A stretch of 48,126 nt of DNA from Thermoguttaceae bacterium (GTDB taxonomy: Bacteria > Planctomycetota > Planctomycetia > Pirellulales > Thermoguttaceae): contig JAFZAL010000085.1 in NCBI GenBank assembly GCA_017557195.1, forward strand, positions 1-48,126, in the 5' to 3' direction. The notes under the pieces are model-generated. The model was not told the origin of the DNA. It saw only the letters and a program-made list of their open reading frames with translations, and made no database searches. The position numbers were made by a program, and so were the translations under genes. This document shows positions 3,163 to 45,738 of this stretch, piece after piece (the first letter of the stretch is position 1; the number at the start of each line of letters is the position of its first letter).

Positions 3163-3250
3163 AAGTGGTAAGTTGTAAGTGGTAAGCGATTAGGACGCAA
3201 GCGCTGCTCATACTTACCACTAACTACTTACCACTAACCACTAACCACTT
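3163..3250. repeat. Heptad-arm element (GTAAGTG dialect) between divergent genes
   Basis: Left arm of 7-bp units AGTGGTA/AGTTGTA (3163-3186), GC-rich core with GACGCAAGCGCTGCTC, then a right arm of TTACCAC/TAACCAC units (3211-3250) that is the reverse complement of the left. It sits between two divergently transcribed genes and ends 13 bases before the next start codon, so it is not simply a terminator. Confidence 0.85.
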
Positions 3251-3263
3251 AAAATACGCTCAA

Positions 3264-5177
3264 ATGCGAATTACAATATCAATATTCCTGACAACGTTTT
3301 TTATTTACGGCTTTGCTTTGGCGCAAGAGGACGAAGCCCCTTTTCCGATTCTGCCGGAAGAATTGGAAGCGGCGGAGCCTTTAGACGATACTGAAGCATC
3401 GGAAACGCCCAATGAGTCGGAAGACGTTCAACCGTTAACAGACGACGCGGAAGAAGCCGTTCCGGATAAAACGCCGTCGGATCCGTCTGAACAGGAAGAC
3501 GAACAAACGGATCAGCCTATGCTGCCAGAGGGTATTTCCGAAGAAGAAGCGCGCTGGGCGAACTGGTCGGACTGGGATAACGTAGGCGTGAAAAATGATA
3601 ATGCCAACAAAGCGCCTCAACAACAGGAATTAATCGCTCCGCAAACGGAAGAAGACGCTTTTGTTGACCAGTCGCACGCCATGGACAAGTCGGCGGTTCC
3701 AATCTTTAACGAGAAACTCGACGCAACGCGACAAATAAGCGCGGAACCGGAAATGGCAGACCCGTTTGAACAGGCGCTTGATCAAAATAATGAAGACGTT
3801 CAAACGCAAGACGATAATCAGGAAGAAAACGTTACAGATAACAACGATTTCCAGACAACTGACAACGATCAAAACGTCAACCCGCCTTCGTCCAATAACC
3901 CGCAACAGTCTGTTACAGATTTAATTGACGATGCAACGGCAGAATCCGAATCCGCTTTGCCGCAAAAAACTCGTTATATGGAATCGTTTTCTTTGCGTCA
4001 GGACAAGCCGGCGAAAATAAACAACCGCATTTCCAGCGTTATTGAAAAGATTAAAGTCGTTCGGCGTCAATATTTTGACAAACAGCTCAATACGCAAGAC
4101 AATTCTCCTTTTGAAGCCATGATGTCCGTTTGCGCTTTTGGCTGTTACACGTCTATTCTCTACACCCCTCAAAACGAGAAATTCAATACGGCGGGGGCTC
4201 TGTGCTGGAATTACCCCATGTGCGAGACTTCCATTTTAGCGGTCAACCAAAACCCCAAAGCGGTAAACAGCGCTCAGTTTTCCAAAAATCGAACGGGAAA
4301 GCCGCTCTTTATGACCCGCTATCCTCATGGACGCTTAACCACCGTTCCGATGAACAATTCCGGCGTCGTTTTCCCCTACATCGGCTACTGTCAGCAGGAG
4401 CGAAGCGGCGAGTTCCTCTCCATGCTGGCGATTGCCAGAGTTTCGGTCGATTACGAGTTTACGCCCCGCATGCCGATGGATATAGACGTTCTTATCGCCA
4501 ACGAGGGAGATTCTCCAGACTCTTCTTCTCCTGCCGTTCGCTCTTCCGGATTGACGTTTACCGTTGCCGACCTTGCGTCAGACGCGATGCTCAACTGCCG
4601 CGGCGGAGACATGTCCGCTCTGTTGACCAGTCTGGCTTATTACGCTCCTCGGGAGAGTTGGAAAAACGCCTGGAGCGAAGAGTGGTCGGTGTTGAAAATT
4701 CTCGACCATGAACTCAAACGAAAAGTCAATCTGTCCGATTCTGATTCAACAGATCGTCTTTACGGCTTGACGTATGCGCTCAGGCGCCGGTTGGCGTTTG
4801 ACGACAAGCGTTTGGAAATTCAGTACGCTATTGTCGACGAATACCTGGAACGAATGAAAGACTTTGCTCTTTCGATTCAGAATGAAGACGGTTCTTTTAA
4901 CGGCGCGTTTTTTACCCGAAAGGGAAAAAGCCGGAACCCGGACGACGATTTCGCCGCGACGGCGCATTTCGCCCGATGGCTGACAATTCTCTATCACAGC
5001 AGCGCTTTAGACGACCCTCGACTGACGAAAATGATCGAGTTTCTCGTTTCCGAACTCGAACAGCGGCTGGAAAGCTGGAACCCGTCGGAGATGTCACAAA
5101 AAGACGTCCGCGCCGTTGCCTACGCTTTGCAGGCGATTGCTATCTATCAACAGCGCTGGGCGGCGAAAAGCAATTAG
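3264..5177 (+). CDS. Secreted acidic protein of unknown function
   Basis: A 637-residue protein with a clear signal peptide (cleavage likely after FALAQ, residue 21). Residues 22-220 are low-complexity and very rich in Glu, Asp, Gln and Asn, probably disordered. The rest (about 230-637) looks folded and helical. It contains FGCYTSILYTPQNEKF and paired Cys residues, then repeated hydrophobic helices including SFNGAFFTRKGK and HFARWLTILYHSS near the end. The last third resembles an alpha/alpha-toroid of the kind found in other large planctomycete proteins, but I do not recognise the family. Its neighbours are unrelated (a divergent symporter and convergent gyrB). No Shine-Dalgarno sequence is seen. 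It could be a periplasmic binding or scaffold protein; function unknown. Confidence 0.75.
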   Translation: MRITISIFLTTFFIYGFALAQEDEAPFPILPEELEAAEPLDDTEASETPNESEDVQPLTDDAEEAVPDKTPSDPSEQEDEQTDQPMLPEGISEEEARWANWSDWDNVGVKNDNANKAPQQQELIAPQTEEDAFVDQSHAMDKSAVPIFNEKLDATRQISAEPEMADPFEQALDQNNEDVQTQDDNQEENVTDNNDFQTTDNDQNVNPPSSNNPQQSVTDLIDDATAESESALPQKTRYMESFSLRQDKPAKINNRISSVIEKIKVVRRQYFDKQLNTQDNSPFEAMMSVCAFGCYTSILYTPQNEKFNTAGALCWNYPMCETSILAVNQNPKAVNSAQFSKNRTGKPLFMTRYPHGRLTTVPMNNSGVVFPYIGYCQQERSGEFLSMLAIARVSVDYEFTPRMPMDIDVLIANEGDSPDSSSPAVRSSGLTFTVADLASDAMLNCRGGDMSALLTSLAYYAPRESWKNAWSEEWSVLKILDHELKRKVNLSDSDSTDRLYGLTYALRRRLAFDDKRLEIQYAIVDEYLERMKDFALSIQNEDGSFNGAFFTRKGKSRNPDDDFAATAHFARWLTILYHSSALDDPRLTKMIEFLVSELEQRLESWNPSEMSQKDVRAVAYALQAIAIYQQRWAAKSN

Positions 5178-5187
5178 CAATTATGTT

Positions 5188-5299
5188 GTGAGTGCATAGT
5201 GCGTAGTGCATAGTGCATAGTGAGGGGAGCGCTTTGCGTACTATGCACTAGGCGCTAAGCGCTAAGTACTACTGCCTACTGCCTCTTGCCTACTGCCTA
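5188..5299. repeat. Heptad-arm element (GTGCATA plus TACTGCC dialects)
   Basis: Left arm of GTGCATA/GTGCGTA units (5188-5221), core GAGCGCTTTGCG, one matching TATGCAC unit, a GCGCTAA pair, then four TACTGCC/TCTTGCC units (5267-5299) with no partner on the left. It lies between two convergent genes. The arms are therefore only partly matched. Confidence 0.8.
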
Positions 5300-5301: not shown

Positions 5302-7896
<2,595 letters not shown>

Positions 7897-7899
7897 TTA

Positions 7900-8032
7900 G
7901 TTGCGAGTGGCGAGTGGAGAGTTGCGAGTGGTAAGTGAGAGTGCATAGTGCATAGTGCGTAGTGCATAGTGGGGGGAGCGCTTTGCGTCCTAAGTACTAG
8001 GTACTATGCACTAAGTACTTACCACTAACAAC
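7900..8032. repeat. Nested heptad-arm element in the gyrB leader
   Basis: Three dialects occur in order on the left: GCGAGTG (7901-7930), GGTAAGTG, then GTGCATA/GTGCGTA (7940-7970). The core is GGGAGCGCTTTGCGTCC. The right side runs in mirror order: TATGCAC, then ACTTACCAC, then TAACAAC. It lies between the gyrB start codon and the predicted gyrB promoter, so it should be transcribed as part of the 5' leader. Confidence 0.88.
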
Positions 8033-8087: not shown

Positions 8088-8151
8088 GGGCAGACCAGCC
8101 CAAAATCCCCGGATTTTCAACGGATTTTTCAAGGTTTTTTCGAAGGGGTTT

Positions 8152-8224
8152 GGGGAGCGGACATTGTCCGCGAAAAATAAAAAAGATTGTTTGTTGGCGG
8201 GTAATACCCGCCCCCCGTAAAAAA
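8152..8224. repeat. REP-like twin-palindrome element, copy 1
   Basis: Two palindromes, GCGGACATTGTCCGC and GGCGGGTAATACCCGCC, are separated by an A/T-rich spacer and flanked by GGGGA and CCCCCGTAAAA. It is almost identical to copy 2 at 8308-8378. The arrangement resembles BIME/REP pairs. Confidence 0.85.
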
Positions 8225-8247
8225 ATTCCGCCGACGATTCGCTCCCG

Positions 8248-8275
8248 TTGACAAATCGTTTCAAATGGGTATGAT
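8248..8275 (+). promoter_or_regulatory. Sigma-70-type promoter for pyrE
   Basis: TTGACA (8248-8253), 16-base spacer, TATGAT (8270-8275). It lies between the two twin-palindrome copies, so copy 2 falls within the predicted pyrE leader of about 120 bases. Confidence 0.65.
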
Positions 8276-8307
8276 ATAGATTATAGAGCGGCAAAAAAAT
8301 TGTTTCC

Positions 8308-8378
8308 GGGGAGCGGACATTGTCCGCGAAAAATAAAAAAGGTTGTTTGTTGGCGGGTAATACCCGCCCCCCGTAAAA
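8308..8378. repeat. REP-like twin-palindrome element, copy 2
   Basis: Same two palindromes and same spacer as copy 1, in the same orientation, about 85 bases further on. It ends 27 bases before the pyrE ATG. Confidence 0.85.
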
Positions 8379-8405
8379 TTTAACCCCTAACCACATACAT
8401 TGGTC

Positions 8406-8970: not shown

Positions 8971-9060
8971 GAGGGAGTAGGGAGTAGGAAGTAGGGAGTA
9001 GTTTTTAAATTCGCCGAAGGCGAATTACTATTCCCTATTCCCTATTCCCTATTCCCTACT
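8971..9060. repeat. Heptad-arm element (GGGAGTA dialect) between convergent genes
   Basis: Left arm GGGAGTA/GGAAGTA units (8973-9001), a TTTTTAA stretch, core TTCGCCGAAGGCGAA, right arm TATTCCC/TACTCGG units to 9060. The last unit supplies the stop codon of the minus-strand gene that ends at 9056. Confidence 0.88.
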
Positions 9061-9990: not shown

Positions 9991-10134
9991 AGCTTAGCGC
10001 TTAGTAGTTAGTAATTAGCGCTTAGCGCTTAGGAATAAAGGCGCAAAGCGCTCCCCTCACTACGCACTACGCACTATGCACTACGCACTATGCACTATGC
10101 ACTATGCACTATGCACTATGCACTATGCATTATA
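9991..10134. repeat. Heptad arrays (GCGCTTA left, TATGCAC right)
   Basis: Left side GCGCTTA/GTAGTTA units (9992-10031), core GGCGCAAAGCGCTCCCC (reverse complement of the core seen at 5222 and 7972), then at least ten TACGCAC/TATGCAC units to 10130. The two sides are different dialects and would not pair well. The right array is the longest and most regular in the window. Confidence 0.85.
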
Positions 10135-11747: not shown

Positions 11748-11766
11748 GATAATTATTAAAGACGAA

Positions 11767-11870
11767 AGGGAGTAGGGAGTAGGGAGTAGGGAGTAGTTTT
11801 TAAATTCGCCGTAGGCGAATTACTATTCCCCATTCCCTATTCCCTATTTCCTTCTATTCCCCATTCCCTC
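11767..11870. repeat. Heptad-arm element (GGGAGTA dialect) between hpnC and lpxD
   Basis: Left arm of four GGGAGTA units, TTTTTAAA, core TTCGCCGTAGGCGAA, right arm of TATTCCC-type units that loses exact phase near 11850. It separates two genes that run in the same direction. Nearly the same core as at 9008 and 40076. Confidence 0.87.
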
Positions 11871-11898
11871 ACATTTTCGTGTTGTTTCGTACTTTATT

Positions 11899-12958: not shown

Positions 12959-13062
12959 GAGGGAATAGGGAGTAGGGAGTAGGGAGTAGAGAGGCAATAG
13001 GCAGTAGGCAGTAGGCAGTAGGAAAATAGTACTACTGCCTCTTGCCTACTCCCTACTGCCTA
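12959..13062. repeat. Mixed-dialect heptad element between lpxD and aspS
   Basis: Left side: three to four GGGAGTA/GGGAATA units followed by four GGCAGTA/GGCAATA units. Right side: TACTGCC, TCTTGCC, TACTCCC, TACTGCC. The last unit provides the aspS stop codon (13060-13062). There is no GC-rich core of the usual kind. Confidence 0.83.
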
Positions 13063-16423: not shown

Positions 16424-16458
16424 CATTCGGAATTCGGAATTCGGAATGCGGAATTAGC
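16424..16458. repeat. Short heptad array (ATTCGGA/GGAATTC dialect)
   Basis: Four to five 7-bp units of ATTCGGA with one ATGCGGA variant fill the 45-base gap between top6A and the next gene. No right arm is present. This dialect also appears at 24834-24856. Confidence 0.75.
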
Positions 16459-24796: not shown

Positions 24797-24870
24797 CAGG
24801 GAGTAGGGAATGGGGAATAGGGAATAGTTTAATTCGGAATGCGGAATTAGGAATTACGCAAAGCGCATTT
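24797..24870. repeat. Heptad arrays in the leader of the 24099-24794 gene
   Basis: GGGAGTA/GGGAATA units (24800-24827) followed by ATTCGGA-type units (24831-24856) and a short GCAAAGCGC core. It lies wholly between the predicted promoter and the start codon of the minus-strand gene. Confidence 0.8.
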
Positions 24871-24883
24871 CAATTATTAATTT

Positions 24884-24911
24884 ATTATACATTGTATGAA
24901 CATTGCGTCAA
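24884..24911 (-). promoter_or_regulatory. Sigma-70-type promoter for the 24099-24794 gene
   Basis: Minus strand: TTGACG (24911-24906), 16-base spacer, TATAAT (24889-24884). Near-consensus. The resulting leader of about 85 bases contains the heptad array. Confidence 0.7.
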
Positions 24912-24999
24912 GACGGCGCTGTTTTTTTCCTGTACCCTCTTTTATTCTAATTGCAATTCTATTATAATAAGGAATATTATATTGAGGCGTTTGCGTTTT

Positions 25000-25030
25000 C
25001 TCGCAACTCGCAACTCGTAACTCGCAACTC
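25000..25030. repeat. Heptad array (AACTCGC dialect)
   Basis: Four TCGCAAC/TCGTAAC units just upstream of the GH43-like gene. No matching left arm lies nearby; the closest complementary units are at 26880. Confidence 0.75.
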
Positions 25031-26079: not shown

Positions 26080-26108
26080 CGGGTTCTAAAAATATGGACT
26101 TCTACGCT

Positions 26109-26778: not shown

Positions 26779-26877
26779 TATTCCTATTTATAATATACGA
26801 TTTATTTAAGAAAAAGAAACCGGGAAACAGAAAAATACTGGAAAATTCTTGATTTTTATTTTTGATTGGTTTATAAT

Positions 26878-26981
26878 TAGTTGCGAGTTGCGAGTAGCGA
26901 GTTGCGAGACGCCGCTCCCGTTGGTCGCTAACATATTCTTACTACTGCCTACTGCCTATTGCCTACTGCCTCCCTCCCTGC
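26878..26981. repeat. Heptad-arm element (GCGAGTT left, TACTGCC right)
   Basis: Left array GTTGCGA/GTAGCGA (26880-26909), core CGCCGCTCCCGTTGGTCGCT, right array TACTGCC/TATTGCC (26941-26971). The dialects on the two sides do not match each other but match those on the far side of the next gene (28353-28455). It runs to within two bases of the start codon at 26983. Confidence 0.83.
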
Positions 26982-26982
26982 C

Positions 26983-28356: not shown

Positions 28357-28455
28357 TTAGGCAGTAGGCAATAGGCAGTAGGCAGTAGGCAGTAGTGAGA
28401 ATGCGGATTTGATGGTAGCGTCTTTCTCGCAACTCGCCACTCGCAACTCGCAACT
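28351..28455. repeat. Heptad-arm element (GGCAGTA left, AACTCGC right)
   Basis: Left array GGCAGTA/GGCAATA from 28359, an A/T-rich middle, right array TCGCAAC/TCGCCAC (28427-28455). The left array is complementary to the right array of the preceding element, and the right array to the left array of both neighbouring elements. Confidence 0.83.
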
Positions 28456-28472
28456 ATATTGGAGAAATTATA

Positions 28473-30950: not shown

Positions 30951-31005
30951 CTCTAAATTCGCCGAAGGCGAATCCCTACTGCCTATTGCCTACTGCCTAC
31001 TGCCT
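30937..31005. repeat. Heptad-arm element overlapping a gene end
   Basis: Left side ATTAGTTGCGAGTAG overlaps the end of the GH106-like gene. The core is TTCGCCGAAGGCGAA; the right side is TACTGCC/TATTGCC units (30976-31003). Confidence 0.8.
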
Positions 31006-31015
31006 TATTACACTC

Positions 31016-32137: not shown

Positions 32138-32188
32138 TCGAGTCTCGCTTTGCGACTATTCCCTATTCCCTACTCCCTATTCCCTAAA
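32138..32188. repeat. Heptad array (TATTCCC dialect), right arm only
   Basis: After a short TCGCTTTGCGA palindrome, four to five TATTCCC/TACTCCC units run to 32186, just before the GH5 start codon. There is no left arm. Confidence 0.8.
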
Positions 32189-32192
32189 TATT

Positions 32193-33755: not shown

Positions 33756-33772
33756 GAGTTGCAAGTGGATGA

Positions 33773-33907: not shown

Positions 33908-33918
33908 CCATTAATTGT

Positions 33919-36639: not shown

Positions 36640-36785
36640 GTTTTTCTCTTATAAAGGGTTAAACTGATACAATATAATTATTTGAACTACTTATAATTAT
36701 ACACGAAAACAATATATAATGATACGTCAAAAAACCCCTATTTGTTCTTTTTTATCCAAAATAGAAGGGAAAAGTGAGAAAAGAG

Positions 36786-36961
36786 GCTGTAGGGAGTAGG
36801 GAATAGGGAGTAGGAAGTAGTTTTTGAGTTGCTAGCTGTTAGCTCCTGGCTATTAGCTTGGACGTTCGTGGTTCTTAGCGGTAATATTTAACGCTGGAAG
36901 CTAAAATCACAAAGCTAACAGCTAGCGGCTAGCAGCTAAAAGCTCATCTCCCCCCCTATTC
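36786..36961. repeat. Nested heptad element (GGGAGTA outside, GCTNNTA inside)
   Basis: Outer left GGGAGTA/GGGAATA units (36790-36819) face an outer right CCCCCTATTCC (36951-36961). The inner left (36830-36869) is GCTAGCT/GTTAGCT/ATTAGCT with period 7, and the inner right (36898-36945) is AGCTAAC/AGCTAGC/AGCTAAA. The two dialects are arranged in mirror order around a centre near 36885. Confidence 0.87.
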
Positions 36962-36978
36962 CATTTAAAAATCGATTT

Positions 36979-36987
36979 TGATATAAT
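36979..36987 (+). promoter_or_regulatory. Extended -10 promoter for the Gfo/Idh/MocA gene
   Basis: TGA followed by TATAAT (36982-36987), preceded by A/T-rich sequence; no good -35. It lies about 75 bases upstream of the start codon. Confidence 0.45.
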
Positions 36988-37061
36988 AAATGAAAATTAA
37001 TAATTAGAGCGTTGTTTAGATTGCCATCAAAGACGCTTTCCCTTCCTTTAACCCTGTAAAA

Positions 37062-38543
37062 ATGATCATGACTGTCAAGAGAAAGATTTCCAGACGAGAT
37101 TTCGTTAAAGCCAGCGTCGTCGTTGCCGGCGCGGCGGTTTGTCCGTTGTTTATTTCGTCCGAGGCGTTTGGAGCGAACGACCGCCTTCGCGGGGCCGTTT
37201 TGGGCGTTGGCGGTCGCGGAAATCATCACGTTCAGGCGTTTTCCAAAATTGACGGCGTTGACATCGTCGGAACAGTTGACGCTGATTTGAATCGCGCCAA
37301 CAGCGCCGCTAAATGGGTCAAAGAAAAAATGGGGAAAGACTGTGGCGCCGTTCAGGACGCCCGCAAGATTTTTGACGACAAAAACATCGATTTCGTTTCT
37401 ATCGCGACTTGCAACCACTGGCATTCTTTGCTGGGTATTTGGGCGGCGCAGGCGGGAAAACACGTCTACGTCGAAAAGCCATGTTCGCAAAACCTCTTTG
37501 AGGGCTGTCAGCTGGCCGCGGCGATGAGAAAGTACAACGTCTGCATTCAGCACGGAACGCAGCGTCGCTGCGACTTTGGAATCAAAAAAGGCGCAGTCGC
37601 CTGGGCAAAGGGAATGTTCGGGAAGCCGATTGCCGTCAAGGCGTTTGCCAACCGACCTCGCAATCCCATGCCGTTCCTTCCAGACGCCCCTGTCCCGCAA
37701 AACATCGATTGGGATTTGTGGGTCGGTCCGGCGGCAATGGTTCCCTTTAGCGAACGATACGTCCCGTACAACTGGCATTGGTACTGGAATTTTGGCAACG
37801 GAGAAATCGGCAACAACGGCGTTCATTACTTTGACGTCTGCCGAATCGGTTTGACGCAGCTTTTCCCCGATCTCAAATTCCCGAAAAACGTCGTCTTTTT
37901 CGGAACGCGAACGGTTATCGACAAAGAGCATAATTATAAGGACGCCGCGGAAACGCCAACCGTCATGCTGGGAATTTGCGACTTTAACGGGATTCCGCTC
38001 ATTTTCCAGTCCTGCAATTTGAGAAATCGCAACAATGAAAAATGGAATCCGCGAGAAGTCGGCTGGTTTGTTACAGAAGACGGATACATTCAAGGCTCGA
38101 CGTTCCATTCCAACAGTGGAAAGACGGAACCCGTCAATATTGACTGCGAAGCTCTCAACCCCGGCGACATCTTCCAGAACTTTATCAACTGCGTTCGCGA
38201 CAATACGCCGGACAAACTCAACGCGCCGATTACCGAAGGGCATTTCAGCGCCGGAATTTGTCACTTGGGCAACGTCTCCTATCGTTCCGGGTCAACAGCG
38301 CCGCTGAGCGCCTGCCGCGAAGCCGTCGGAAACAATCCGATTATGCAGCAGACGATTGACGAAACGCTCGAAAACGTCCAGTTCTGCCTGCCGGAACTTG
38401 ACCTCAACAAAGACGTTTCCTGGACGCTGGGCAAAAAGATTTCCATCAACAACGACACGTTCCAGATTGACGGCATGCCGGACGCCAACGCGCTGCTGAC
38501 TCGTCCGCAGCGCACGCCGTTTATCGTTCCGAAAATTGAATAA
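37062..38543 (+). CDS. Tat-exported Gfo/Idh/MocA-family oxidoreductase
   Basis: A 493-residue NAD(P)-dependent oxidoreductase of the glucose-fructose oxidoreductase/inositol dehydrogenase/MocA type. The N-terminus has a twin-arginine signal, SRRDFVK (10-16), followed by a hydrophobic stretch and AFGAND, so it is exported folded with its cofactor, as in many planctomycetes. The Rossmann motif is AVLGVGGRGNH (45-55). The catalytic-Lys motif EKP lies at 138-140 (HVYVEKPCS), preceded by NHWH (118-121). The C-terminal domain carries the family's aromatic NWHWYWNFGNGEIGNNGVHYFD. Start could be ATG 37062 or ATG 37068. Substrate unknown; probably a sugar or cyclitol, in keeping with the glycosidases upstream. 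Confidence 0.93.
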   Translation: MIMTVKRKISRRDFVKASVVVAGAAVCPLFISSEAFGANDRLRGAVLGVGGRGNHHVQAFSKIDGVDIVGTVDADLNRANSAAKWVKEKMGKDCGAVQDARKIFDDKNIDFVSIATCNHWHSLLGIWAAQAGKHVYVEKPCSQNLFEGCQLAAAMRKYNVCIQHGTQRRCDFGIKKGAVAWAKGMFGKPIAVKAFANRPRNPMPFLPDAPVPQNIDWDLWVGPAAMVPFSERYVPYNWHWYWNFGNGEIGNNGVHYFDVCRIGLTQLFPDLKFPKNVVFFGTRTVIDKEHNYKDAAETPTVMLGICDFNGIPLIFQSCNLRNRNNEKWNPREVGWFVTEDGYIQGSTFHSNSGKTEPVNIDCEALNPGDIFQNFINCVRDNTPDKLNAPITEGHFSAGICHLGNVSYRSGSTAPLSACREAVGNNPIMQQTIDETLENVQFCLPELDLNKDVSWTLGKKISINNDTFQIDGMPDANALLTRPQRTPFIVPKIE

Positions 38544-38544
38544 A

Positions 38545-38629
38545 GTTAGGCATTAGGCAATAGGCAGTAGGCAGTAGTGGTTCGCTTTCGGCGAATTACT
38601 ATTCCCTATTCCCTACTCCCAATTCCCTC
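38545..38629. repeat. Heptad-arm element (GGCAGTA left, TATTCCC right)
   Basis: Left array GGCATTA/GGCAATA/GGCAGTA, core TTCGCTTTCGGCGAA, right array TATTCCC/TACTCCC. Left and right are different dialects. The same combination recurs at 40036-40118. Confidence 0.84.
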
Positions 38630-38649
38630 ACCCAATTAACCCCTCAACC

Positions 38650-40047
38650 ATGACACGCACCATCACAACTATTGTTTTTGCTTTGTTTATCTCGCTGACG
38701 ACGGCTCTGTTTGCTGACGAGGCGATTCAAGTCGTTAATTTTACCAACGGGACGGAAATTGATTACCCGGTCGCGCTGCTGCGAGGGCGTCTTTCAGACG
38801 AATCGTCAACGGAAATTGTCTGTACAAATTTATCGTCGCCCAAAGCGTCCCGGCAGATTCACGGCGACGCCTGGAAAGGACAGTTCAAAGTCCTGACTGA
38901 ACTCGTTCCGGGAGAAAACGAACTCGAACTGACAAGCGGAGAACATAAAACGACTCTGAAACTGAACTACAAAAAGAACTCCAATCCGCTGGTTGTCCGT
39001 ATGATATATATGACGGACTCAACCGGCGACACGGCGTTTCAAACGCCGTATGAAAACGACCCGCAGAATTACAAAGGTAAGCTCGATACGGCGTTGAAGC
39101 TGATGCAGTGCTTTACCGCAGAAACCATGAACGACGCCGGTTTGGGAAGAAAAACGTTCAATCTGGAACTGGACGAAAACGGCGATGTAATCGTTCACGT
39201 CTTCAAAGGGGAGAAGACGATGGAAGAATACGCAGATCTTTCTGATCACGAATGGTACGTTAAGGTCTATCAGGAAATTTCAAATGACTTCCCGTGGTAC
39301 AATGGGAAAAACCTCGTCATTCCCGCCTATACGCGCTTTGATTCCGAAACCAAAAGGGCAAAATGTCACACAGCGTTGGGCGGCGGAAGTCTGGCTCTGT
39401 TTGGATCGGGCTGCATGTATACTTGGCCGGATTCTCTCGACGGCGTTGTCAAGGCGTTTACAGACTCTACGCCTGTTGATAAAGAACGTTTCCATGACGA
39501 CACCGCTTATCGTTCCGTTTACTGGGCGGCGGCGTCAACGACAATCGGCGCGGCTTTGCACGAGTTGGGACACACTTTCGGGCTGCCCCATTCCAACCAG
39601 CCGCGCGACATCATGACCCGCGGAATCGACCATCTCAACCGCTTTTTCGTCATGCGGGAAGCTCCCAGCCGATACAATCGCGATTGGCTGGAAAACATGG
39701 ATGACCGAGCCGCCAACTGGTCGCTCATTTCCGCAGCCGCGCTGAACGTCTGCCCGTTCTTCCAGGACGAAGCGCCGACTGAGAATCAGGGAAGGGTTAG
39801 TCTGCAAATTGTCGACGACGGGAAAGCCGTTGAGGTCGAGGCGGAAAACGGCATCGCCTATTTCGGCGCCATGTCTGACGGACATCGCCAGTTTTTCGTT
39901 GCCCCACAACCGGGTCAGGAACTGCCCAAACAGATGCGATTCACCGTTGAGGAACTCAAAGACAACGTCAAAAATTTCAAAGACGGTATGGAACTTCACG
40001 CCATTGACCGATACGGAAAGACGAGAAGCGTTCGTATTAGGCAATAG
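38650..40047 (+). CDS. Secreted metzincin-like metallopeptidase, paralogue 1
   Basis: A 465-residue exported protein (signal peptide MTRTITTIVFALFISLTTALFA, cleavage about residue 22). An N-terminal beta domain (about 25-110) precedes a zinc-peptidase domain with the full metzincin motif HELGHTFGLPH at 304-314 and a candidate Met-turn IMTRGIDHLNRFF from 321. The combination of HELGHTFGLPH, DIM and LNRFF resembles the putative metallopeptidase family known from fungal YIL108W-like proteins (Pfam Metallopep); this is recognition, not a search result. The catalytic Glu is Glu305. The next gene is a close tandem paralogue. The last codons and the TAG stop (AGG CAA TAG) are heptad repeat sequence. 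No Shine-Dalgarno sequence; AACC precedes the ATG. Confidence 0.82.
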   Translation: MTRTITTIVFALFISLTTALFADEAIQVVNFTNGTEIDYPVALLRGRLSDESSTEIVCTNLSSPKASRQIHGDAWKGQFKVLTELVPGENELELTSGEHKTTLKLNYKKNSNPLVVRMIYMTDSTGDTAFQTPYENDPQNYKGKLDTALKLMQCFTAETMNDAGLGRKTFNLELDENGDVIVHVFKGEKTMEEYADLSDHEWYVKVYQEISNDFPWYNGKNLVIPAYTRFDSETKRAKCHTALGGGSLALFGSGCMYTWPDSLDGVVKAFTDSTPVDKERFHDDTAYRSVYWAAASTTIGAALHELGHTFGLPHSNQPRDIMTRGIDHLNRFFVMREAPSRYNRDWLENMDDRAANWSLISAAALNVCPFFQDEAPTENQGRVSLQIVDDGKAVEVEAENGIAYFGAMSDGHRQFFVAPQPGQELPKQMRFTVEELKDNVKNFKDGMELHAIDRYGKTRSVRIRQ

Positions 40048-40118
40048 GCAAGAGGCAGTAGGCAGTAGTTTTTAAATTCGCCGAAGGCGAATTACTATTC
40101 CCTATTCCCTACTCCCTC
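40036..40118. repeat. Heptad-arm element overlapping the end of paralogue 1
   Basis: Left array GGCAATA/GGCAAGA/GGCAGTA starts inside the coding sequence and supplies its stop. The TTTTTAAA stretch and core TTCGCCGAAGGCGAA match those at 9001-9022. Right array TATTCCC/TACTCCC. Confidence 0.85.
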
Positions 40119-40140
40119 ACCCAATTAACCCCAACTAACC

Positions 40141-41544
40141 ATGACACGTTATATTACAACTATCGTTTTTGCTTTATTCATCTCGTTGGCATCGGCTCTG
40201 TTTGCTGACGAGGAAATTCAAGTCGTCAATTTTACCGACGGGACGGAAATTGACTATCCGGTCGCGTTGCTGCGCGGGCGTCTGTACGACGAAACCGCTA
40301 CGGAAATCGTCTGCACGAATTTGTCGTCACAAAAAGCGTCTCGACAGATTCACGGCGACGCTTGGAAAGGACAGTTCAAGGTTCTTGCTGAACTCGTTCC
40401 GGGGGAAAACGAACTCGAACTGACAAGCGGCGACTATAAAACGACTCTGAAGCTGAACTACAAAAAGAACTCCAATCCGCTGGTTGTCCGCATGATTTAT
40501 ATGACGGATTCGACGGGCGACACGACTTTTCAAACGCCGTATAAAAACGACCCTCAAAATTTCAAGGGCAAACTCGATACGGCTTTGAAGCTGATGCAGT
40601 GCTTTACGGCAGAAACCATGAACGATGCCGGATTGGGCAGAAAGACGTTTAATCTGGAACTGGACGAAAACGGAGACGTAATCGTTCACGTTTTCAAGGG
40701 GAAGAAGACCGCAGAGGAATACGGTTCCGTTTCCGATGAAGATTGGTTCGACATGATTTCTGATGAAATTTCGCCTCGGTTCCCGGGTCATTCTGGACGC
40801 AACCTCGTCATTCCCGCTTATACTCGCTTTGATTCCAAAACCAAAAAGGCGAAATGTCACACAGCGTTGGGCGGCGGCTGGCAGGCTCTGTTTGGCTCGG
40901 GTTGCATGTATACGTGGCCGGACTCACTCGACGGCGTCGTCAAAGCGTTTACGGACTCTACCCCCGTTGACGGCAAACATTATCATGACGATTCCGCCTA
41001 TCGTTCCGTTTACTGGGCAGCGGCTGCAACGACAATCGGCGCGGCTCTGCACGAGTTGGGACACACCTTCGATCTGCCGCATTCCAATGAACCGCGCGAC
41101 ATCATGACCCGCGGAATCGACCAGCTTAACCGTTTCTTTGTCATGCGGGAAGCCCCCAGCAAAGAAAACGACGATTGGCTGGAAAACATTGACGATGAAG
41201 CCGCCAATTGGTCGCCCATTTCCGCCGCGGCTCTGAACGTCAACCGGTTCTTCCAGGACGAACCGCCGATGGACGATGAAGGGGAAGTCAACATTCAGCT
41301 CACCGACGACAATCAGACCGTTAAACTCGAAGCGGAAAACGGCATCGCCTTTTTCGGCGTCGCGTCCGGCGAAGATAGACAGCTTTACGTTGCGCCACTA
41401 CCCGGTCAGCCTCTGCCTAAACAGATGAGTTTTTCTTTAGACGAACTCAAAGACAGCTGCGAGGAATTCAAAGGCGACTTGGAACTTCACGTCATTGATC
41501 GGTACGGGAAGACGGAGGGAATTCATATCAAGATTAGGGAATAG
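40141..41544 (+). CDS. Secreted metzincin-like metallopeptidase, paralogue 2
   Basis: A 467-residue paralogue of the preceding gene, same length and domain order, with long identical stretches in the N-terminal domain and around the active site. Signal peptide MTRYITTIVFALFISLASALFA. The zinc motif is HELGHTFDLPH: Gly after HTF is replaced by Asp, so this copy is H-E-x-x-H-x-x-D-x-x-H rather than the usual metzincin H-E-x-x-H-x-x-G-x-x-H (Asp in place of Gly is known in some families, for example snapalysin-type). Met-turn candidate IMTRGIDQLNRFF is kept. Divergence is greatest in the variable segments GSVSDEDWFDMISDE and in the C-terminal third. The final codons AGG GAA TAG belong to a heptad array of a different dialect from that of paralogue 1. 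Confidence 0.82.
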   Translation: MTRYITTIVFALFISLASALFADEEIQVVNFTDGTEIDYPVALLRGRLYDETATEIVCTNLSSQKASRQIHGDAWKGQFKVLAELVPGENELELTSGDYKTTLKLNYKKNSNPLVVRMIYMTDSTGDTTFQTPYKNDPQNFKGKLDTALKLMQCFTAETMNDAGLGRKTFNLELDENGDVIVHVFKGKKTAEEYGSVSDEDWFDMISDEISPRFPGHSGRNLVIPAYTRFDSKTKKAKCHTALGGGWQALFGSGCMYTWPDSLDGVVKAFTDSTPVDGKHYHDDSAYRSVYWAAAATTIGAALHELGHTFDLPHSNEPRDIMTRGIDQLNRFFVMREAPSKENDDWLENIDDEAANWSPISAAALNVNRFFQDEPPMDDEGEVNIQLTDDNQTVKLEAENGIAFFGVASGEDRQLYVAPLPGQPLPKQMSFSLDELKDSCEEFKGDLELHVIDRYGKTEGIHIKIRE

Positions 41545-41624
41545 GAGTTAAAGGCAGTAGGCAATAGGCAGTAGGCAGTAGAGGTTTTTAAACTATTGCC
41601 TCTTGCCTACTGCCTACTGCCTAA
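41533..41624. repeat. Heptad-arm element overlapping the end of paralogue 2
   Basis: Begins GGGAATA inside the coding sequence, followed by GGCAGTA/GGCAATA units (41553-41580). The middle is GAGGTTTTTAAA without a GC core; right array TATTGCC/TCTTGCC/TACTGCC to 41622, just before the umuC start. Here the arms match. Confidence 0.84.
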
Positions 41625-41628
41625 AATC

Positions 41629-42888
41629 ATGCTCTTCGCTCTGGCTGACTGTAACAGTTTTTACGCGTCGTGCGAGACGGCGTTCAAGCCGTTTTTGCGC
41701 GGACGCCCTGTTATTGTCCTGTCGAACAACGACGGGTGCGTTGTCGCCAGAAGTCGGGAAGCGAAGCAACTCGGAATCGCCATGGGCGCGCCGTTTTTCC
41801 AGATTCGGGAATTCTGCCGAGCCAATCGCGTTGCCGTCTTTTCTTCAAACTACGCTCTTTATGGCGACATGAGCCAGCGGGTTATGCAAACCTTGGCATC
41901 AACAGTTCCGGAAATTGAGCAGTACTCTATCGACGAGGCGTTTTTGAATCTGACGGGAATGCGAAACGTTACAACGGCGTTCGCCGAGTCTATCGTTGAT
42001 CGCGTCAAGCTCTGGACGGGCATTCCGATTTCGATTGGAATCGCCCCAACCCGAACGCTGGCAAAAGTCGCCAACCGTCAGGCGAAAATGGACGGCATGA
42101 AAACCTGTCTTCTTCTGGACGAATCCAAGCGAATCGACGTTCTGAAACGCTTTCCGGTAGAAGAAGTCTGGGGCGTTGGACGTCAGCTGTCCGTCAAGCT
42201 GGAACGTATGGGAATCCAGTCGGCATTCGACCTCGCCCAGCAAGACCCGGTTCAAATCCGCAAACGATTCACCGTTATTCAGGAGGCGATGGTTCGAGAA
42301 CTCAACGGGGAAACCTGTCTGGGCAACCAGCAGTCCCCGCCGACGGCGAAAAGCATTCAGACGTCTCGTTCGTTTGGCAAGCCGCGATACGAGTTCGACG
42401 CGCTTTCTTCCGCAATATCGACGTTCGTTTCCCGCGCGGCGGAAAAGCTCCGGGAGCAAGGGCAAGTCGCCCGCGCCGTTGACGTCTATATTCGCACCAG
42501 CCCATTTCGACCGGTGGCGCAATACTCTGCGTCAACCGTCGTTCCGCTTGGACGCCCCACCAGCGACACGCTCTTGCTGACTCAAGCGGCTCTTGACGGT
42601 CTTGCCAAAATCTTTCAGCCCAACTACGCCTATCAGAAAGCGGGAATCATTCTTATTGACTTGTCCTCCGCCGCTGTCAACAGAGCTCAGCTAACCTTTT
42701 TCGACGACCCGGAAGAACTGGAACGCCGCGCCGGACTGATGAAAACTCTCGACCGGCTCAACGAAAAATTCGGCCGCAGCTCTGTCATGACGGGAACTCA
42801 GCTTCTGGACGACTCATGGAAATCCGTTCAGCAAAATTCGTCTCCCCGATACACGACCGAATGGGACGATCTGCTGGTGGCGAAGTAA
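41629..42888 (+). CDS. umuC: Y-family DNA polymerase, UmuC type
   Basis: A 419-residue translesion polymerase, the catalytic part of a Pol V-like enzyme. ATG 41629 (MLFALADCNSFYASCE) is the conserved family start; the upstream in-frame ATG at 41596 is repeat-derived. The palm has ALADCNSFYASCE (first metal-binding Asp), LSNNDGCVVARS and YSIDEAFL (second Asp-Glu pair). The helix-hairpin-helix EEVWGVGRQLSVKLERMGI and the little-finger domain follow, ending in the UmuC-type tail (RSSVMTGTQLLDDSWKS). No umuD is adjacent and no LexA-type operator was recognised nearby. There is no Shine-Dalgarno sequence; heptad units end five bases before the ATG. Confidence 0.94.
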   Translation: MLFALADCNSFYASCETAFKPFLRGRPVIVLSNNDGCVVARSREAKQLGIAMGAPFFQIREFCRANRVAVFSSNYALYGDMSQRVMQTLASTVPEIEQYSIDEAFLNLTGMRNVTTAFAESIVDRVKLWTGIPISIGIAPTRTLAKVANRQAKMDGMKTCLLLDESKRIDVLKRFPVEEVWGVGRQLSVKLERMGIQSAFDLAQQDPVQIRKRFTVIQEAMVRELNGETCLGNQQSPPTAKSIQTSRSFGKPRYEFDALSSAISTFVSRAAEKLREQGQVARAVDVYIRTSPFRPVAQYSASTVVPLGRPTSDTLLLTQAALDGLAKIFQPNYAYQKAGIILIDLSSAAVNRAQLTFFDDPEELERRAGLMKTLDRLNEKFGRSSVMTGTQLLDDSWKSVQQNSSPRYTTEWDDLLVAK

Positions 42889-42940
42889 GGGAATAGGGAG
42901 TGGGGAATAGGAAGTAGTAATTCGCCTTTGGCGAATTCAC
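42888..42940. repeat. Heptad-arm element downstream of umuC
   Basis: GGGAATA/GGGAGTG/GGAAGTA units followed by core ATTCGCCTTTGGCGAAT (42919-42935). The right arm is missing. Confidence 0.78.
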
Positions 42941-43026
42941 CCCATCAATCTTAAAAGGAAACGGAGTTCTCAAGCGTCAAAATTCCTCTTGTCAAATTGA
43001 GTGTTTTCTGGTAATATATAATATAA

Positions 43027-43060
43027 AGCTGTTAGCTAATAGCTAAAAGCTAGTAGCTTT
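43027..43060. repeat. Heptad array (GCTNNTA dialect)
   Basis: Units AGCTGTT, AGCTAAT, AGCTAAA, AGCTAGT, AGCT with exact period 7, upstream of the Asp-rich thioredoxin-fold gene. The same dialect forms the inner arms at 36830-36945, and a remnant is visible at 45000-45016. Confidence 0.78.
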
Positions 43061-43112
43061 CTTTCATGCAACTAATTGTCCACACCATTTCCAAAACAAC
43101 AAGGAGAGAACC

Positions 43113-44987
43113 ATGCGTTGTACATTAATGAATATAGCCGCCTTTTTGGCTATGACCCTGTTTATGGCGTCCTGTTTTGCTGACGACGCCCCTGCCCCGA
43201 CTGACGAAGCGCCTGCTGTTGAAAACGCAGAGCAGACTGCGGACGACGTTCCCGCTGAAGATATGGATGCGGAAGCAAACGTCGAAGAAGCTCTCGAAGA
43301 GGAAAGCGCCGATTCCGAAACTTATCCCGTCCCGGAAAACGGAACCCCGGCAGAATACCTGGCGTTTATCGGAAAGCTCATGCTCGTCGAACGTCCTCAC
43401 GACCAGTCGCGGGAAGAAATGATTGCTCATTACACCAAACTGTGCAACGCTCAGGTCGCGGCGGCTGACAAGGTCATTGAACATAAAGACGCAACGCCAG
43501 AACAGATTCAGCGCGCTGTCGCCGTCAAAATCAAGAGTCTGCAGATTCTTATCAAGGCGGGAAACAAAGACGCTAAAATTCAACTGTACTCCATGCCGGG
43601 TCAGCTCGAAAAAGTCGGGCAGTCTCAAATTGCAGACGAAATTGTCATGGGATTGATTACTCTGACGTTCCAGGACGCCAAACAGAGCGGCGATTTTTCT
43701 GAAATCGAAAAGATTATCGAGCAAACTACTCAAACCATTAAAAAGACGCCTGCAGAAAACAAAGAAAAACTTCAGCGTCTGTACCTGATTAAACTTATTT
43801 GCGTCAAAGGACTCGGACAGCTCAAAGAAGTAGACAACTCGGCTGATTTTGAAGCGGTTATTGCTGAAATCAAAGAAGCCGGTTTGGGTGAAATGGTTGA
43901 AGACATTTTCATGGGCAAGCTCGCCAGCGCGCTGTCAGAATCGGTTGCTCAAAATGATAAAGTCAAGTTCGATAAAACTGCCAAAGCGGTTGATAACATG
44001 ATTGCAGACTACGGAGCTAAAGCCAATCTGAAAGTTGCGGCAATCGCTTTCCAAACCGCTTTTACCGAAGAGGTGTTTGACGCAGACGCCGCTGCCGCTC
44101 GCTATGAAAAATACGCCGCGCTGTTTGAAAAGATTCAAGACGAAAGCGTTCAGAAAATTGTTAATACAATGCGCGGTTCCGCCAAGCGTCTTACTCTCAA
44201 GGGAAAAGAACTGCCGCTTACCGGCAAAACCGTCGACGGCAAAGACTTCAACATGGCTGACCTGAAAGATAAAACCGTTTTGGTTTACTTCTGGTCGCCG
44301 GGCGTTCCTCCCTGTATGGATGAATTCAAATACTTGAAACTCGCCTATCCGTCTTACAAAGACAAAGGATTTGAAATTGTCTGCATCGCTTTGGACCAGG
44401 ACAAAAAACAGGTTGCCTCGTTCGTTAAAAAACACAATTTCCCTTGGATTAATCTGTGGGAAAAGGACGCCCTGGTTAACAATGTTTGCATCAGCGATTA
44501 CTTTGGCATTGTAGCTTTGCCCTGCATGTTTATGGTTGGTCCTGATGGAAAAGTAATCTCAATTGACGCTCGCAACGACCTTCTGATTGAAACGTTGACA
44601 GATAAGTATGGTGAATTAACAGTAACCGAAGAAGACATCGAAGAAGTTGAGGAAGACGACGAAAACGTTGATATCGATGACGAAGACGATGTAGACGTTG
44701 AAGATGACGCCGACGTTGATGACGAAGACGATGTAGACGTTGAAGATGACGCCGACGTTGATGACGACGCCGATGTTGACGAAGACGTTGACGTTGAAGA
44801 CGACGCTGATGTTGACGAAGACGTTGACGTTGAAGACGACGCCGATGTTGACGAAGACGTTGACGTCGAAGAAGACGCCAATGCTGACGAAGACGTTGAA
44901 GTTGAAGAAGATAATGCCAATGTTGAAGACGATAACTACGACATTGGAGAAAATGTCGATATCCAGGACAACGACGTTGATTTTTGA
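43113..44987 (+). CDS. Exported thioredoxin-fold protein with Asp-rich tail and missing CXXC
   Basis: A 624-residue exported protein; AAGGAG lies upstream of the ATG. The signal peptide ends at SCFA, and Cys21 in MASC could be a lipoprotein anchor. An acidic spacer (about 25-72) is followed by a helical region (75-355), then a TlpA/AhpC-TSA-type thioredoxin fold (about 362-500). The fold shows LVYFWSPGVPPCMDEFKYLK and a cis-Pro at ALPCMF (470), but where TlpA proteins have W-C-x-P-C the first Cys is Val (residue 398), leaving only Cys401. Classic dithiol chemistry is therefore unlikely; a single-Cys or structural role is possible. Residues 505-620 are Asp/Glu/Val repeats (units like DADVDEDVDVED, encoded by near-perfect 36-bp DNA repeats at 44750-44870), probably disordered and cation-binding. 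Confidence 0.83.
   Translation: MRCTLMNIAAFLAMTLFMASCFADDAPAPTDEAPAVENAEQTADDVPAEDMDAEANVEEALEEESADSETYPVPENGTPAEYLAFIGKLMLVERPHDQSREEMIAHYTKLCNAQVAAADKVIEHKDATPEQIQRAVAVKIKSLQILIKAGNKDAKIQLYSMPGQLEKVGQSQIADEIVMGLITLTFQDAKQSGDFSEIEKIIEQTTQTIKKTPAENKEKLQRLYLIKLICVKGLGQLKEVDNSADFEAVIAEIKEAGLGEMVEDIFMGKLASALSESVAQNDKVKFDKTAKAVDNMIADYGAKANLKVAAIAFQTAFTEEVFDADAAAARYEKYAALFEKIQDESVQKIVNTMRGSAKRLTLKGKELPLTGKTVDGKDFNMADLKDKTVLVYFWSPGVPPCMDEFKYLKLAYPSYKDKGFEIVCIALDQDKKQVASFVKKHNFPWINLWEKDALVNNVCISDYFGIVALPCMFMVGPDGKVISIDARNDLLIETLTDKYGELTVTEEDIEEVEEDDENVDIDDEDDVDVEDDADVDDEDDVDVEDDADVDDDADVDEDVDVEDDADVDEDVDVEDDADVDEDVDVEEDANADEDVEVEEDNANVEDDNYDIGENVDIQDNDVDF
44640..44900 (+). repeat. In-gene tandem repeats encoding Asp-rich tail
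   Basis: Degenerate tandem units built on GTTGACGAAGACGTTGAC and GTTGAAGACGACGC, arranged in 36- and 42-bp steps and all in frame. Typical of repeats that change copy number by slippage. Confidence 0.8.
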
Positions 44988-45030
44988 GAAAAAGAAACTG
45001 TTAGCTAATAACTAATCAGGCGAAACCGCC

Positions 45031-45594
45031 ATGTCAAGCAATCCGTTTAGTACAAAGTTTATCCGTCCGGGAGCAATAGCGTATCAATGCGCTCCCGGCA
45101 AGTCGATAGCGTACTATGCGGATTGTTTTTTATCCAACGGTCGGCGCGGTCAGGTTGTCGGACCGCATGGGACTGGCAAGTCAACGTTTGTTATTGCATT
45201 TCAAAAAGAACTCGCCACTCGCGGGCTGGACGCTCATTTGATTACGCTTCACTCGTTTGACAAGAGCGAGTTAAATAATCTGTTAACGCTGAAGCCTGGT
45301 TCCATTCTAATTCTTGACGGTTTTGAACAGCTTCCGTTCTGGCGTCGCTTTAAGATTATCCATTCAACCCTCTGGCGTAATATCGGGTTGCTAACGACGT
45401 CTCACGTCTCGTTTGGTCTGCCGACGCTGCTGGAAACAAGCGTTGACCTTGAAACCACCCAAAATCTGGTTCGAACGCTTACCGGCTCTGAACCGCCTGA
45501 AAATCTGGAATCCCTTCTGACAAAACACAACGGCAACCTCCGCGAAGTCTTCTTTGACCTGTACGACGAGTGCGAAGGAATAAAGAGGCAATAG
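45031..45594 (+). CDS. Small P-loop NTPase of unknown role
   Basis: A 187-residue cytoplasmic protein. Walker A is GPHGTGKST (44-52) and Walker B SILILDGFEQ (91-100, Asp96). The sequence between, VIAFQKELATRGLDAHLITLHSFDKSE, and a later LLTTSHVSFGLPTLLET (sensor-like) suggest a single compact ATPase domain with a RecA- or AAA-like core, too short for a full motor protein. I do not recognise a family. It lies 43 bases after the Asp-rich thioredoxin-fold gene with no full heptad element between them, so the pair may be one transcript; this is the only such gap here. The last codons AGG CAA TAG are heptad sequence, so the true C-terminus may once have been longer. Confidence 0.75.
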   Translation: MSSNPFSTKFIRPGAIAYQCAPGKSIAYYADCFLSNGRRGQVVGPHGTGKSTFVIAFQKELATRGLDAHLITLHSFDKSELNNLLTLKPGSILILDGFEQLPFWRRFKIIHSTLWRNIGLLTTSHVSFGLPTLLETSVDLETTQNLVRTLTGSEPPENLESLLTKHNGNLREVFFDLYDECEGIKRQ

Positions 45595-45738
45595 GCAAGA
45601 GGCAGTAGGCAGTAGTAAGTGGTTAGTGGTAAGTGGTTAGTGAGATGAACGCTTGCGTCCTAACCACTAAGAACTTATTACTAACCACTGAGCGCTGCGC
45701 TTGCGTCCTATTGCCTACTGCCTATTGCCTACTGCCTT
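45586..45738. repeat. Nested heptad-arm element (GGCAATA outside, GTGGTTA inside)
   Basis: Outer left GGCAATA/GGCAAGA/GGCAGTA (45587-45615), inner left AGTGGTTAGTGGTAAGTGG (45616-45642), core with two CGCTTGCGTCC copies, inner right CCACTAA/TTACTAACCAC (45661-45690), outer right TATTGCC/TACTGCC (45709-45737). The mirror order of two dialects is exact. Confidence 0.9.

What the first reader, a model, noticed from the sequence alone, without database searches (positions are those of the whole stretch)
3163..45738. A family of 7-bp-unit 'heptad-arm' elements fills most intergenic regions
More than twenty intergenic gaps carry tandem 7-bp units, usually as left arm, short palindromic core, and right arm of reverse-complement type. 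The unit sequence differs from place to place (GGGAGTA, GGCAGTA, GTGCATA, GTAAGTG, GCGAGTT, GCTNNTA, GGAATTC), yet all fit the register G-N-N-N-N-T-N. Two core types recur: TTCGCCGAAGGCGAA and a block like AGCGCTTTGCGTCC. They occur between convergent, divergent and co-directional genes, so they are not simply terminators. Heptameric tandem repeats are known in cyanobacteria, but a multi-dialect family with mirrored arms and shared cores is not one I recognise.
Basis: partly seen in the sequence, partly recalled or inferred. Interest (0 to 1): 0.93.

Follow-up and report, generated by a model that had tools for sequence, protein, structure and literature searches.

The report
Heptad-armed palindromes between bacterial genes
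Most gaps between genes in this stretch of a planctomycete genome hold arrays of repeated 7-letter DNA words, often as two arms facing each other across a small core, and these elements come and go between sister species, so they are likely non-coding mobile DNA, though what would move them is unknown.

Summary
In detail: 25 period-7 arrays in the window, none in 20 Markov sequences, in 18 of 28 called gaps. In four Thermoguttaceae congeners the arms are often 30-32 bp (about four heptads), face each other (82 inward, 6 outward pairs) and have a CGC-GCG core on the inner side (188 of 345; outer side 17 of 345). The two arms often differ in dialect, and between species an arm or the whole element is swapped, lost or reversed. 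43 of 48 elements tested have full-length relatives elsewhere. No target duplication was seen. Best reading: non-autonomous palindromic mobile elements, mover unknown. A Y1/RAYT link is not excluded: arrays are commoner in Y1-bearing relatives (23 of 32) than Y1-less ones (2 of 8), yet an array-rich Bacteroidota draft shows no Y1 match. Prior work covers part: Rehm 2015 (four units, convergent pairs, orientation to genes) and MacGregor 2015. My first rule, A-[G/A]-T pointing away from genes, is beaten outside the genus by plain G-over-C richness (22 to 6 in conflicts). New: many dialects in one genome, dialect-linked cores, chimeric arms, arm-by-arm turnover.

The parts
3162..3249 (.). Element: AGTGGTA-type left arm (3162-3186), core ACGCAAGCG (3195-3203), AGTGGTT-type right arm (3212-3249)
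5191..5299 (.). Element between two convergent genes (3264-5177 + and gyrB 5302-7893 -): AGTGCAT left arm, core GCGCTTTGCG (5229-5238), mixed right arms (5240-5266, 5269-5299). In congener G003 the stretch next to gyrB is of AGTTGCG dialect
7899..8029 (.). Element upstream of gyrB: AGTTGCG/AGTGGCG then AGTGCAT arm (7899-7929, 7940-7971), core GCGCTTTGCG (7978-7987), shorter ACT arm; shared with G001, other dialect in G003, absent in G002 (end of right arm placed by eye)
8972..9058 (.). 87-bp element: AGTAGGG left arm (8972-9001), core TTCGCCGAAGGCGAA (9010-9024), AATAGGG right arm (9028-9058)
10001..10133 (.). Element: mixed left arm (10001-10032), core GCGCAAAGCG (10041-10050), long AGTGCAT right arm (10058-10133); absent in G002 and G003, arms and core in the opposite order in G001
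11767..11852 (.). 86-bp element: AGTAGGG arm, core TTCGCCGTAGGCGAA (11805-11819), AATAGGG arm; G003 ortholog gap has no array
12960..13022 (+). AGTAGGG/AATAGGG array followed by AGTAGGC array; a shorter facing arm follows to about 13062 (by eye). Near-identical in G002 and G003
16425..16454 (.). AATTCGG array without A-[G/A]-T direction, between co-directional genes
24798..25030 (.). AATAGGG and AATTCGG arrays (24798-24827, 24831-24856), ACGCAAAGCG (24856-24865), and an AGTTGCG right arm (25000-25030) before the gene at 25048; congeners have AATTAGC-type arrays or other sequence here
26879..26971 (.). Chimeric element: AGTTGCG left arm, AGTAGGC right arm
28358..28455 (.). Chimeric element: AGTAGGC left arm starting just after the stop codon, AGTTGCG right arm; G002 gap is empty (23 against 118 bp)
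30958..31005 (.). Half element: core TTCGCCGAAGGCGAA (30958-30972) and AGTAGGC right arm (30975-31005)
32156..32186 (-). AATAGGG right arm preceded by a TCGCTTTGCGA palindrome
36789..36938 (.). AATAGGG/AGTAGGG left arm (36789-36820) and AGCTNNN heptads (36913-36938)
38546..38627 (.). Chimeric element: AGTAGGC left arm, core TTCGCTTTCGGCGAA (38581-38595), AATAGGG right arm; G003 gap empty (20 against 109 bp)
40038..40117 (.). Element overlapping the stop codon at 40045-40047: AATAGGC left arm, core TTCGCCGAAGGCGAA (40077-40091), AATAGGG right arm; G001 differs in the left arm, G003 in the right
41552..41623 (.). Element of AGTAGGC arms with an AT-rich loop and no GC core
42889..43052 (.). Half element: short AATAGGG-type left arm after the stop codon, core TTCGCCTTTGGCGAA (42921-42935); separate AGCTNNN heptads at 43033-43052
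45586..45737 (.). Composite element overlapping a stop codon: AGTAGGC then AGTGGTT left arm (45586-45642), cores ACGCTTGCG (45649-45657) and GCGCTTGCG (45697-45705), AGTAGGC right arm (45707-45737)

Best explanation
These are dispersed elements of about 70 to 140 bp, two heptad arms facing each other around a short core, and they are likely non-autonomous mobile DNA that would be copied into gene gaps as whole modules and then change arm by arm. Shown: arm and core anatomy, preferred arm length, shared order of variant units, relatives elsewhere with unrelated flanks, and presence, absence and arm swapping at orthologous gaps. Inferred: that a trans-acting enzyme reads the arms and moves the module, probably as a folded single strand, since no target duplication is seen; the enzyme is not identified. 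They would collect at gene borders because coding sequence rejects them and several of the empty gaps are only about 20-30 bp long.
For: Arm length peaks at 30-32 bp in all four congeners (83 of 174, 24 of 44, 37 of 95, 34 of 73 arrays). The same order of variant units recurs, e.g. one 30-bp arm 8 times among 349 oriented arrays. 43 of 48 elements have a hit over at least 80% of their length elsewhere in the fetched genus DNA; 521 of 534 query-hit pairs have unrelated flanks, identity up to 96.6%. Filled and empty orthologous gaps differ by about one element: 118/23, 146/27, 109/20 bp. Of 155 ordered ortholog comparisons 44 keep the dialect set, 15 share part, 53 have another, 43 have no array. 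No more target duplications than shuffled flanks (2 against 2.5 of 65 elements). In orthologous arrays of at least 90% identity A-G-T positions change as often as the rest (7 of 205 against 14 of 406), as expected of dead copies.
Against: No mover is known. Median identity between dispersed copies is only about 80%, and arms of one dialect resemble each other anyway, so part of the hits may be convergent. At a laxer cut-off (80%) positions 1 and 3 change less than positions 4-7 (22 of 377 against 75 of 760, p 0.024, mostly position 7). About half the facing pairs have unlike arms (43 of 82), which a simple module copy does not give. Empty sites are too diverged to read an insertion point. Rehm 2015 found no link to mobile elements and more stable surroundings for Xanthomonas heptads (PMC4692102, section 13 and passages).
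Confidence: 0.48

Rival explanations
1. Host-useful gene-border signals: the arms act in transcripts or DNA (hairpin, R-loop or quadruplex-like G-rich strand) to bound transcription or mRNA at gene ends, and dialect does not matter.
For: Within 30 bp of a stop codon the A-[G/A]-T strand is sense in 123 and antisense in 11 arrays, within 30 bp of a start antisense in 77 and sense in 3. The G-richer strand runs away from the nearest gene in 222 against 28 arrays of the genus and 169 against 36 in other lineages. Array-free gaps show only a weak skew of this kind (0.09-0.12 against 0.33-0.40).
Against: Fast turnover between congeners; facing arms often cannot pair well because dialects differ; few terminator-like hits; direction near borders also follows simply from inward-facing arms in short gaps.
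Confidence: 0.2
2. REP/REPIN-like elements moved by a Y1 (RAYT or IS200-type) transposase of the host.
For: No target duplication, palindromic core, paired inverted arrangement. AGTx5 arrays occur in 23 of 32 Y1-bearing but 2 of 8 Y1-less relatives (Fisher p 0.036, not corrected for kinship).
Against: Of 16 Y1 loci read in the genus 1 has a period-7 array within 560 bp; 6 are flanked by another palindrome that recurs in the fetched DNA. Four of 18 array-bearing genomes of other lineages show no Y1 match, among them Ca. Symbiothrix with 261 and a Caldilineaceae draft with 201 AGTx5 places; drafts may be incomplete.
Confidence: 0.12
3. Ordinary heptanucleotide repeats (LSSR/STRR) that arise and change by replication slippage; facing pairs form because the core hairpin stalls replication from both sides.
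For: Period 7 is the commonest long repeat period in many genomes (Mrazek 2007, as told in PMC4679880 section 3). One orthologous arm differs by exactly one unit (G000/G001 upstream of gyrB).
Against: Arm length is peaked, not spread; variant order and cores are shared between loci; indels inside alignable orthologous arrays are not mainly multiples of 7 (4 of 28 listed are of 7 and 1 of 14 at the 85% cut-off).
Confidence: 0.13
4. Heptads are added to the two 3' ends of a broken gap (telomere-like addition) before the ends are joined.
For: Would give G-rich strands that face inward, unlike dialects in the two arms and no target duplication.
Against: Cores and arm order recur at unrelated places. 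No adding enzyme was searched for. Purely inferred.
Confidence: 0.05

Closest known systems
GGGAATC / GGGGA(C/T)T heptads of Xanthomonas and Nostoc (Rehm et al. 2015, PMC4692102; abstract, sections 11 and 13 and passages seen)
   Same: Period 7, intergenic, four units preferred, convergent inverted pairs (70 and 75 cases in two Xanthomonas), unit within 50 bp of a stop on the coding strand or of a start on the non-coding strand.
   Different: There one G-tract unit per organism, explained by quadruplexes, few pairs in Nostoc; here 26 units in 398 kb, several without any GG tract (e.g. AGTGCAT), recurring cores and unlike arms.
TAACTGA heptads of marine Beggiatoaceae (MacGregor 2015, PMC4679880; abstract, sections 3 and 7 and passages seen)
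   Same: Intergenic heptads; 147 of 170 sets point toward a start codon; the complement is in A-G-T-T-A-T-C form, so the A-G-T strand points away from the gene as here.
   Different: One unit, two to six copies, almost no inverted pairs, no core reported in what I saw.
Heptad-repeat elements of Geobacter metallireducens (PMC2700814; passages seen)
   Same: 49 elements of four tandem heptads; a second class of 16 paired sites, 15 made of five heptads, drawn as folding back.
   Different: Read there as regulator sites or RNA elements; the first class also lies inside genes.
REP / REPIN and RAYT (PMC3733652 passages; PMC3116915 listing only)
   Same: Small dispersed intergenic palindromes, often paired, known from Planctomycetes.
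   Different: Single tag plus hairpin, no period-7 arms in the passages seen; REP-like palindromes beside Y1 genes of this genus are other sequences.

Membership tests
Heptanucleotide LSSR/STRR | Tandem 7-bp units in excess of chance, mainly intergenic | tested here: met
   28 of 386 arrays inside called genes
Heptanucleotide LSSR/STRR | Change by steps of whole units | tested here: inconclusive
   single 7-bp differences occur but other indel lengths dominate
Rehm-type GGGNATC heptads | Unit strand away from the gene; convergent pairs; about four units | tested here: met
Rehm-type GGGNATC heptads | G-tract in each unit (quadruplex) | tested here: not met
   only AGTAGGG/AATAGGG-type units have GGG; AGTGCAT, AGTTGCG, AGTGGTT do not
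REP/REPIN | Cognate RAYT gene flanked by the same repeat | tested here: not met
   1 of 16 Y1 loci of the genus has a period-7 array within 560 bp; some loci are cut by contig ends
REP/REPIN | Hairpin with a GTAG or CGTC tag at one end | tested here: inconclusive
   AGTAGG arms contain GTAG, AGTGCAT and AGTTGCG arms do not; hairpin core found for 188 of 345 arms by motif
MITE | Terminal inverted repeats | tested here: met
   82 inward pairs, but 43 of them with unlike dialects
MITE | Target site duplication | tested here: not met
   2 of 65 against 2.5 in shuffles; short duplications of 2-4 bp would be missed
Intrinsic terminator | Hairpin followed by a T run | tested here: not met
   26000-45900 only: of 38 hits, two in the AGCTNNN stretch and none in the other heptad elements

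The most novel reading that the evidence does not exclude
A widespread, unnamed class of palindromic mobile element joins the scattered heptad repeats of Cyanobacteria, Xanthomonas, Beggiatoaceae, Bacteroidota and Planctomycetota: period-7 arms whose G-rich strand faces inward and whose dialect is free, moved by an enzyme that reads period and strand bias rather than a fixed sequence.
Probability: 0.2. Interest if true: 0.85.

Novelty: new variant of a known kind. Interest (0 to 1): 0.52.

Why it matters
Heptad repeats have been reported one sequence at a time in several phyla without an agreed cause. This genus shows many dialects at once, with cores and species that can be compared gap by gap, so the question whether heptads slip, jump or serve genes becomes testable: orthologous gaps can be found filled, empty, half-swapped or reversed.

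Tried and rejected
Stop codons in all frames as the reason for direction: rejected. 297 of 351 oriented arrays carry a stop on the A-[G/A]-T strand, but the stop-less AGTTGCG dialect obeys the same direction (within 100 bp: after stops 7 sense, 2 antisense; before starts 18 antisense, 1 sense).

A universal A-[G/A]-T register as the cause of direction: weakened by my own test. AGT is the best single trinucleotide for pair direction in both data sets (47 to 1 in the genus; 19 to 0 in other phyla, seed arrays included) and is enriched over shuffled units, but in the genus CTA/TAG is more enriched than AGT, and outside the genus G-over-C wins 22 of 28 conflicts. In other Planctomycetota families AGT direction is weaker, 6 to 2. 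The loci of other phyla were picked for holding an AGTx8 array.

Purifying selection on A-G-T between species: no consistent signal (its first version, mixed in non-homologous alignments and was replaced). Free stem search beside lone arms: small effect, 0.232 inner against 0.196 outer at 5 pairs; the CGC-GCG motif was clearer, 71 of 138 against 7 of 138. That core is not shared with other phyla: inner 7, outer 5 of 173 flanks. Rfam: no hit. A gene-association search beyond Y1, and reverse transcriptases in particular, was not done. In one search four of 16 Y1 frames were read wrongly by my script (minus-strand loci); one search replaces its flank statement.
Full report
Setting. The window is G000:C62, 48,126 bp of a 4.18-Mb, 239-contig genome. 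GyrB at 5302-7893 is 98% identical to a protein named 'Thermoguttaceae bacterium', so this is a planctomycete; three congeners, G001-G003, have GyrB 98-99% identical. Other genes match pyrE, lpxD, aspS and PcrA/Rep-type helicases (ten proteins scanned).

Observation. Period 7 stands out in the window: 25 arrays against none for most other periods and none in 20 Markov sequences. In 398,289 bp of this genome (window plus 20 stretches, ten of them chosen for holding hits) there are 131 arrays of 26 distinct units. With a laxer score the density per 100 kb is 43.7, 33.1, 28.5 and 34.3 in G000-G003; the five control periods give 0-23 arrays per genome, period 9 the most.

Anatomy. Of 388 arrays in the four species 351 can be given a direction by A-[G/A]-T, against 35% of random heptads. 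Neighbouring arrays within 150 bp: 82 inward, 6 outward, 20 in the same direction, 13 with an unoriented member. By G-over-C strand 73 are inward and 4 outward. Arms peak at 30-32 bp, about four heptads plus two bases. A CGC-n-GCG core lies within 40 bp of the inner end of 188 of 345 arms and of the outer end of 17; random 40-bp pieces of gaps give 56 of 534. Dialect and core go together: AGTGNNN arms have CGC-n-GCG in 66 of 74 cases and no TTCGCC core, while 35 of 38 TTCGCC-type cores sit by AGTAGG/AATAGG arms; but 81 of 139 of those arms have neither within 40 bp. The two arms are of like dialect in 39 of 82 pairs, more than the 15.6 of shuffling; the other 43 are unlike.

Place. With a home-made gene caller (691 genes, 386 arrays, 28 inside genes) 136 of 360 co-directional, 32 of 95 convergent and 51 of 109 divergent gaps of 40 bp or more hold arrays; the outer edge lies a median 7 bp from a stop codon (200 cases) and 61 bp from a start (238 cases). 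Stops next to or inside sense arms are TAG in 52 of 123 cases against 186 of 659 complete stops. Arms ending 3-10 bp before a start codon are common (41 of the 91 start-side cases counted), as in MacGregor's Beggiatoaceae.

Change between species. In 155 ordered orthologous comparisons (91 of 262 clusters; reciprocal pairs count twice) 44 keep the dialect set, 15 share part, 53 have another and 43 have no array. Examples: upstream of gyrB the element is shared by G000 and G001, of other dialect in G003, absent in G002; in the gap at 40048 G001 differs in the left arm and G003 in the right; in the gap at 9953 G001 carries arms and core in the opposite order. Filled and empty stretches differ by about one element in the clearest cases: 118 against 23, 146 against 27, 109 against 20 bp. 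Of 43 array-less comparisons 15 have an empty stretch of 70 bp or less, and several of those are not clean.

Spread. 43 of 48 elements have relatives over at least 80% of their length elsewhere in the fetched genus DNA; 521 of 534 query-hit pairs have unrelated flanks, median identity about 80%, best 96.6%. No excess of target duplications was seen.

Mover. Y1_Tnp genes occur in 32 of 40 relatives. AGTx5 arrays occur in 23 of these 32 and in 2 of the 8 Y1-less ones (Fisher p 0.036 without kinship correction), which counts for a Y1 link. Against it: of 16 Y1 loci of the genus only 1 has a period-7 array within 560 bp, while 6 are flanked by another palindrome that recurs in the fetched DNA, such as GGCGGGTATTACCCGCC (21 other exact core copies) and CCGTGGGTTAAAACCCACGG (7). 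In other lineages 4 of 18 array-bearing genomes show no Y1 match, among them Ca. Symbiothrix (261 AGTx5 places) and a Caldilineaceae draft (201).

Breadth. Five AGT heptads in a row occur in 25 of 40 relatives and 104 of 294 genomes of the phylum, patchily. In those loci and further fetched stretches, other Planctomycetota included, the A-[G/A]-T strand runs away from the nearest gene within 60 bp in 149 and toward it in 47 arrays; oriented pairs are 33 inward, 7 outward, 20 in the same direction. G-over-C does better, 169 to 36, and is right in 22 of 28 conflicts. This agrees with Rehm 2015, where the G-rich unit obeys the rule in Xanthomonas and in Nostoc although in Nostoc the A-[G/A]-T strand is the other one.

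Verdict. Real, and only partly known. I found no description of many heptad dialects in one genome, of dialect-linked cores, of unlike arms or of arm-by-arm turnover between species in the open-access listings; subscription papers, such as the first cyanobacterial STRR reports, are not held. What moves them, and why the period is seven and the G-rich strand faces inward, is open.

Noticed in passing
window 8150-8395: Two copies of another palindromic repeat (GCGGACATTGTCCGC ... GGCGGGTAATACCCGCC) lie between gyrB and pyrE; the same palindromes flank Y1 transposase genes at L130 and L142 and recur about 20 times in the fetched genus DNA, so this looks like a REPIN-like family with its RAYT.
   Followed up: partly
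window 33756-33918: A non-heptad element of about 160 bp (GGCGGTAATGGAG ... TTACCGCC with an inner TTCGCAAAGCGAA) has dozens of relatives, many at 80-90% identity, in all three congeners.
   Followed up: partly
L092 (G002), ortholog of window gap 11748-11898: The gap holds facing arms of about 8-bp units (ACACGAAAAACACGAAA ... TTTCGTGTATTTCGTGTT), as if other periods have the same design; period 9 is also the highest control period in G000 and G002.
   Followed up: no
window 36855-36945 and 43030-43052: AGCTNNN heptads keep AGCT and vary three bases from unit to unit.
   Followed up: no
L317-L333 (genomes G194, G238, G262): In three genomes of another Planctomycetota family the AGT of each unit is kept while the other four bases differ between neighbouring units; the arrays were found by an AGT pattern, so the constancy of AGT is partly by selection.
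   Followed up: partly
L335, L336 (G089): A distant Planctomycetota genome has AGTTNAG arms beside TTGCGCTTCGCGC-like palindromes, close to the core type of the window (seen by eye).
   Followed up: no
window 38650-41544: Two neighbouring genes of 465 and 467 aa cross-match in the ortholog search, so they look like tandem paralogs with an element in the gap between them.
   Followed up: no
window 48060-48126: CCCGAAGGGACG and ATAACCGGCGGTTTCA resemble the repeats that flank Y1 genes at L139 and L140 (by eye).
   Followed up: no
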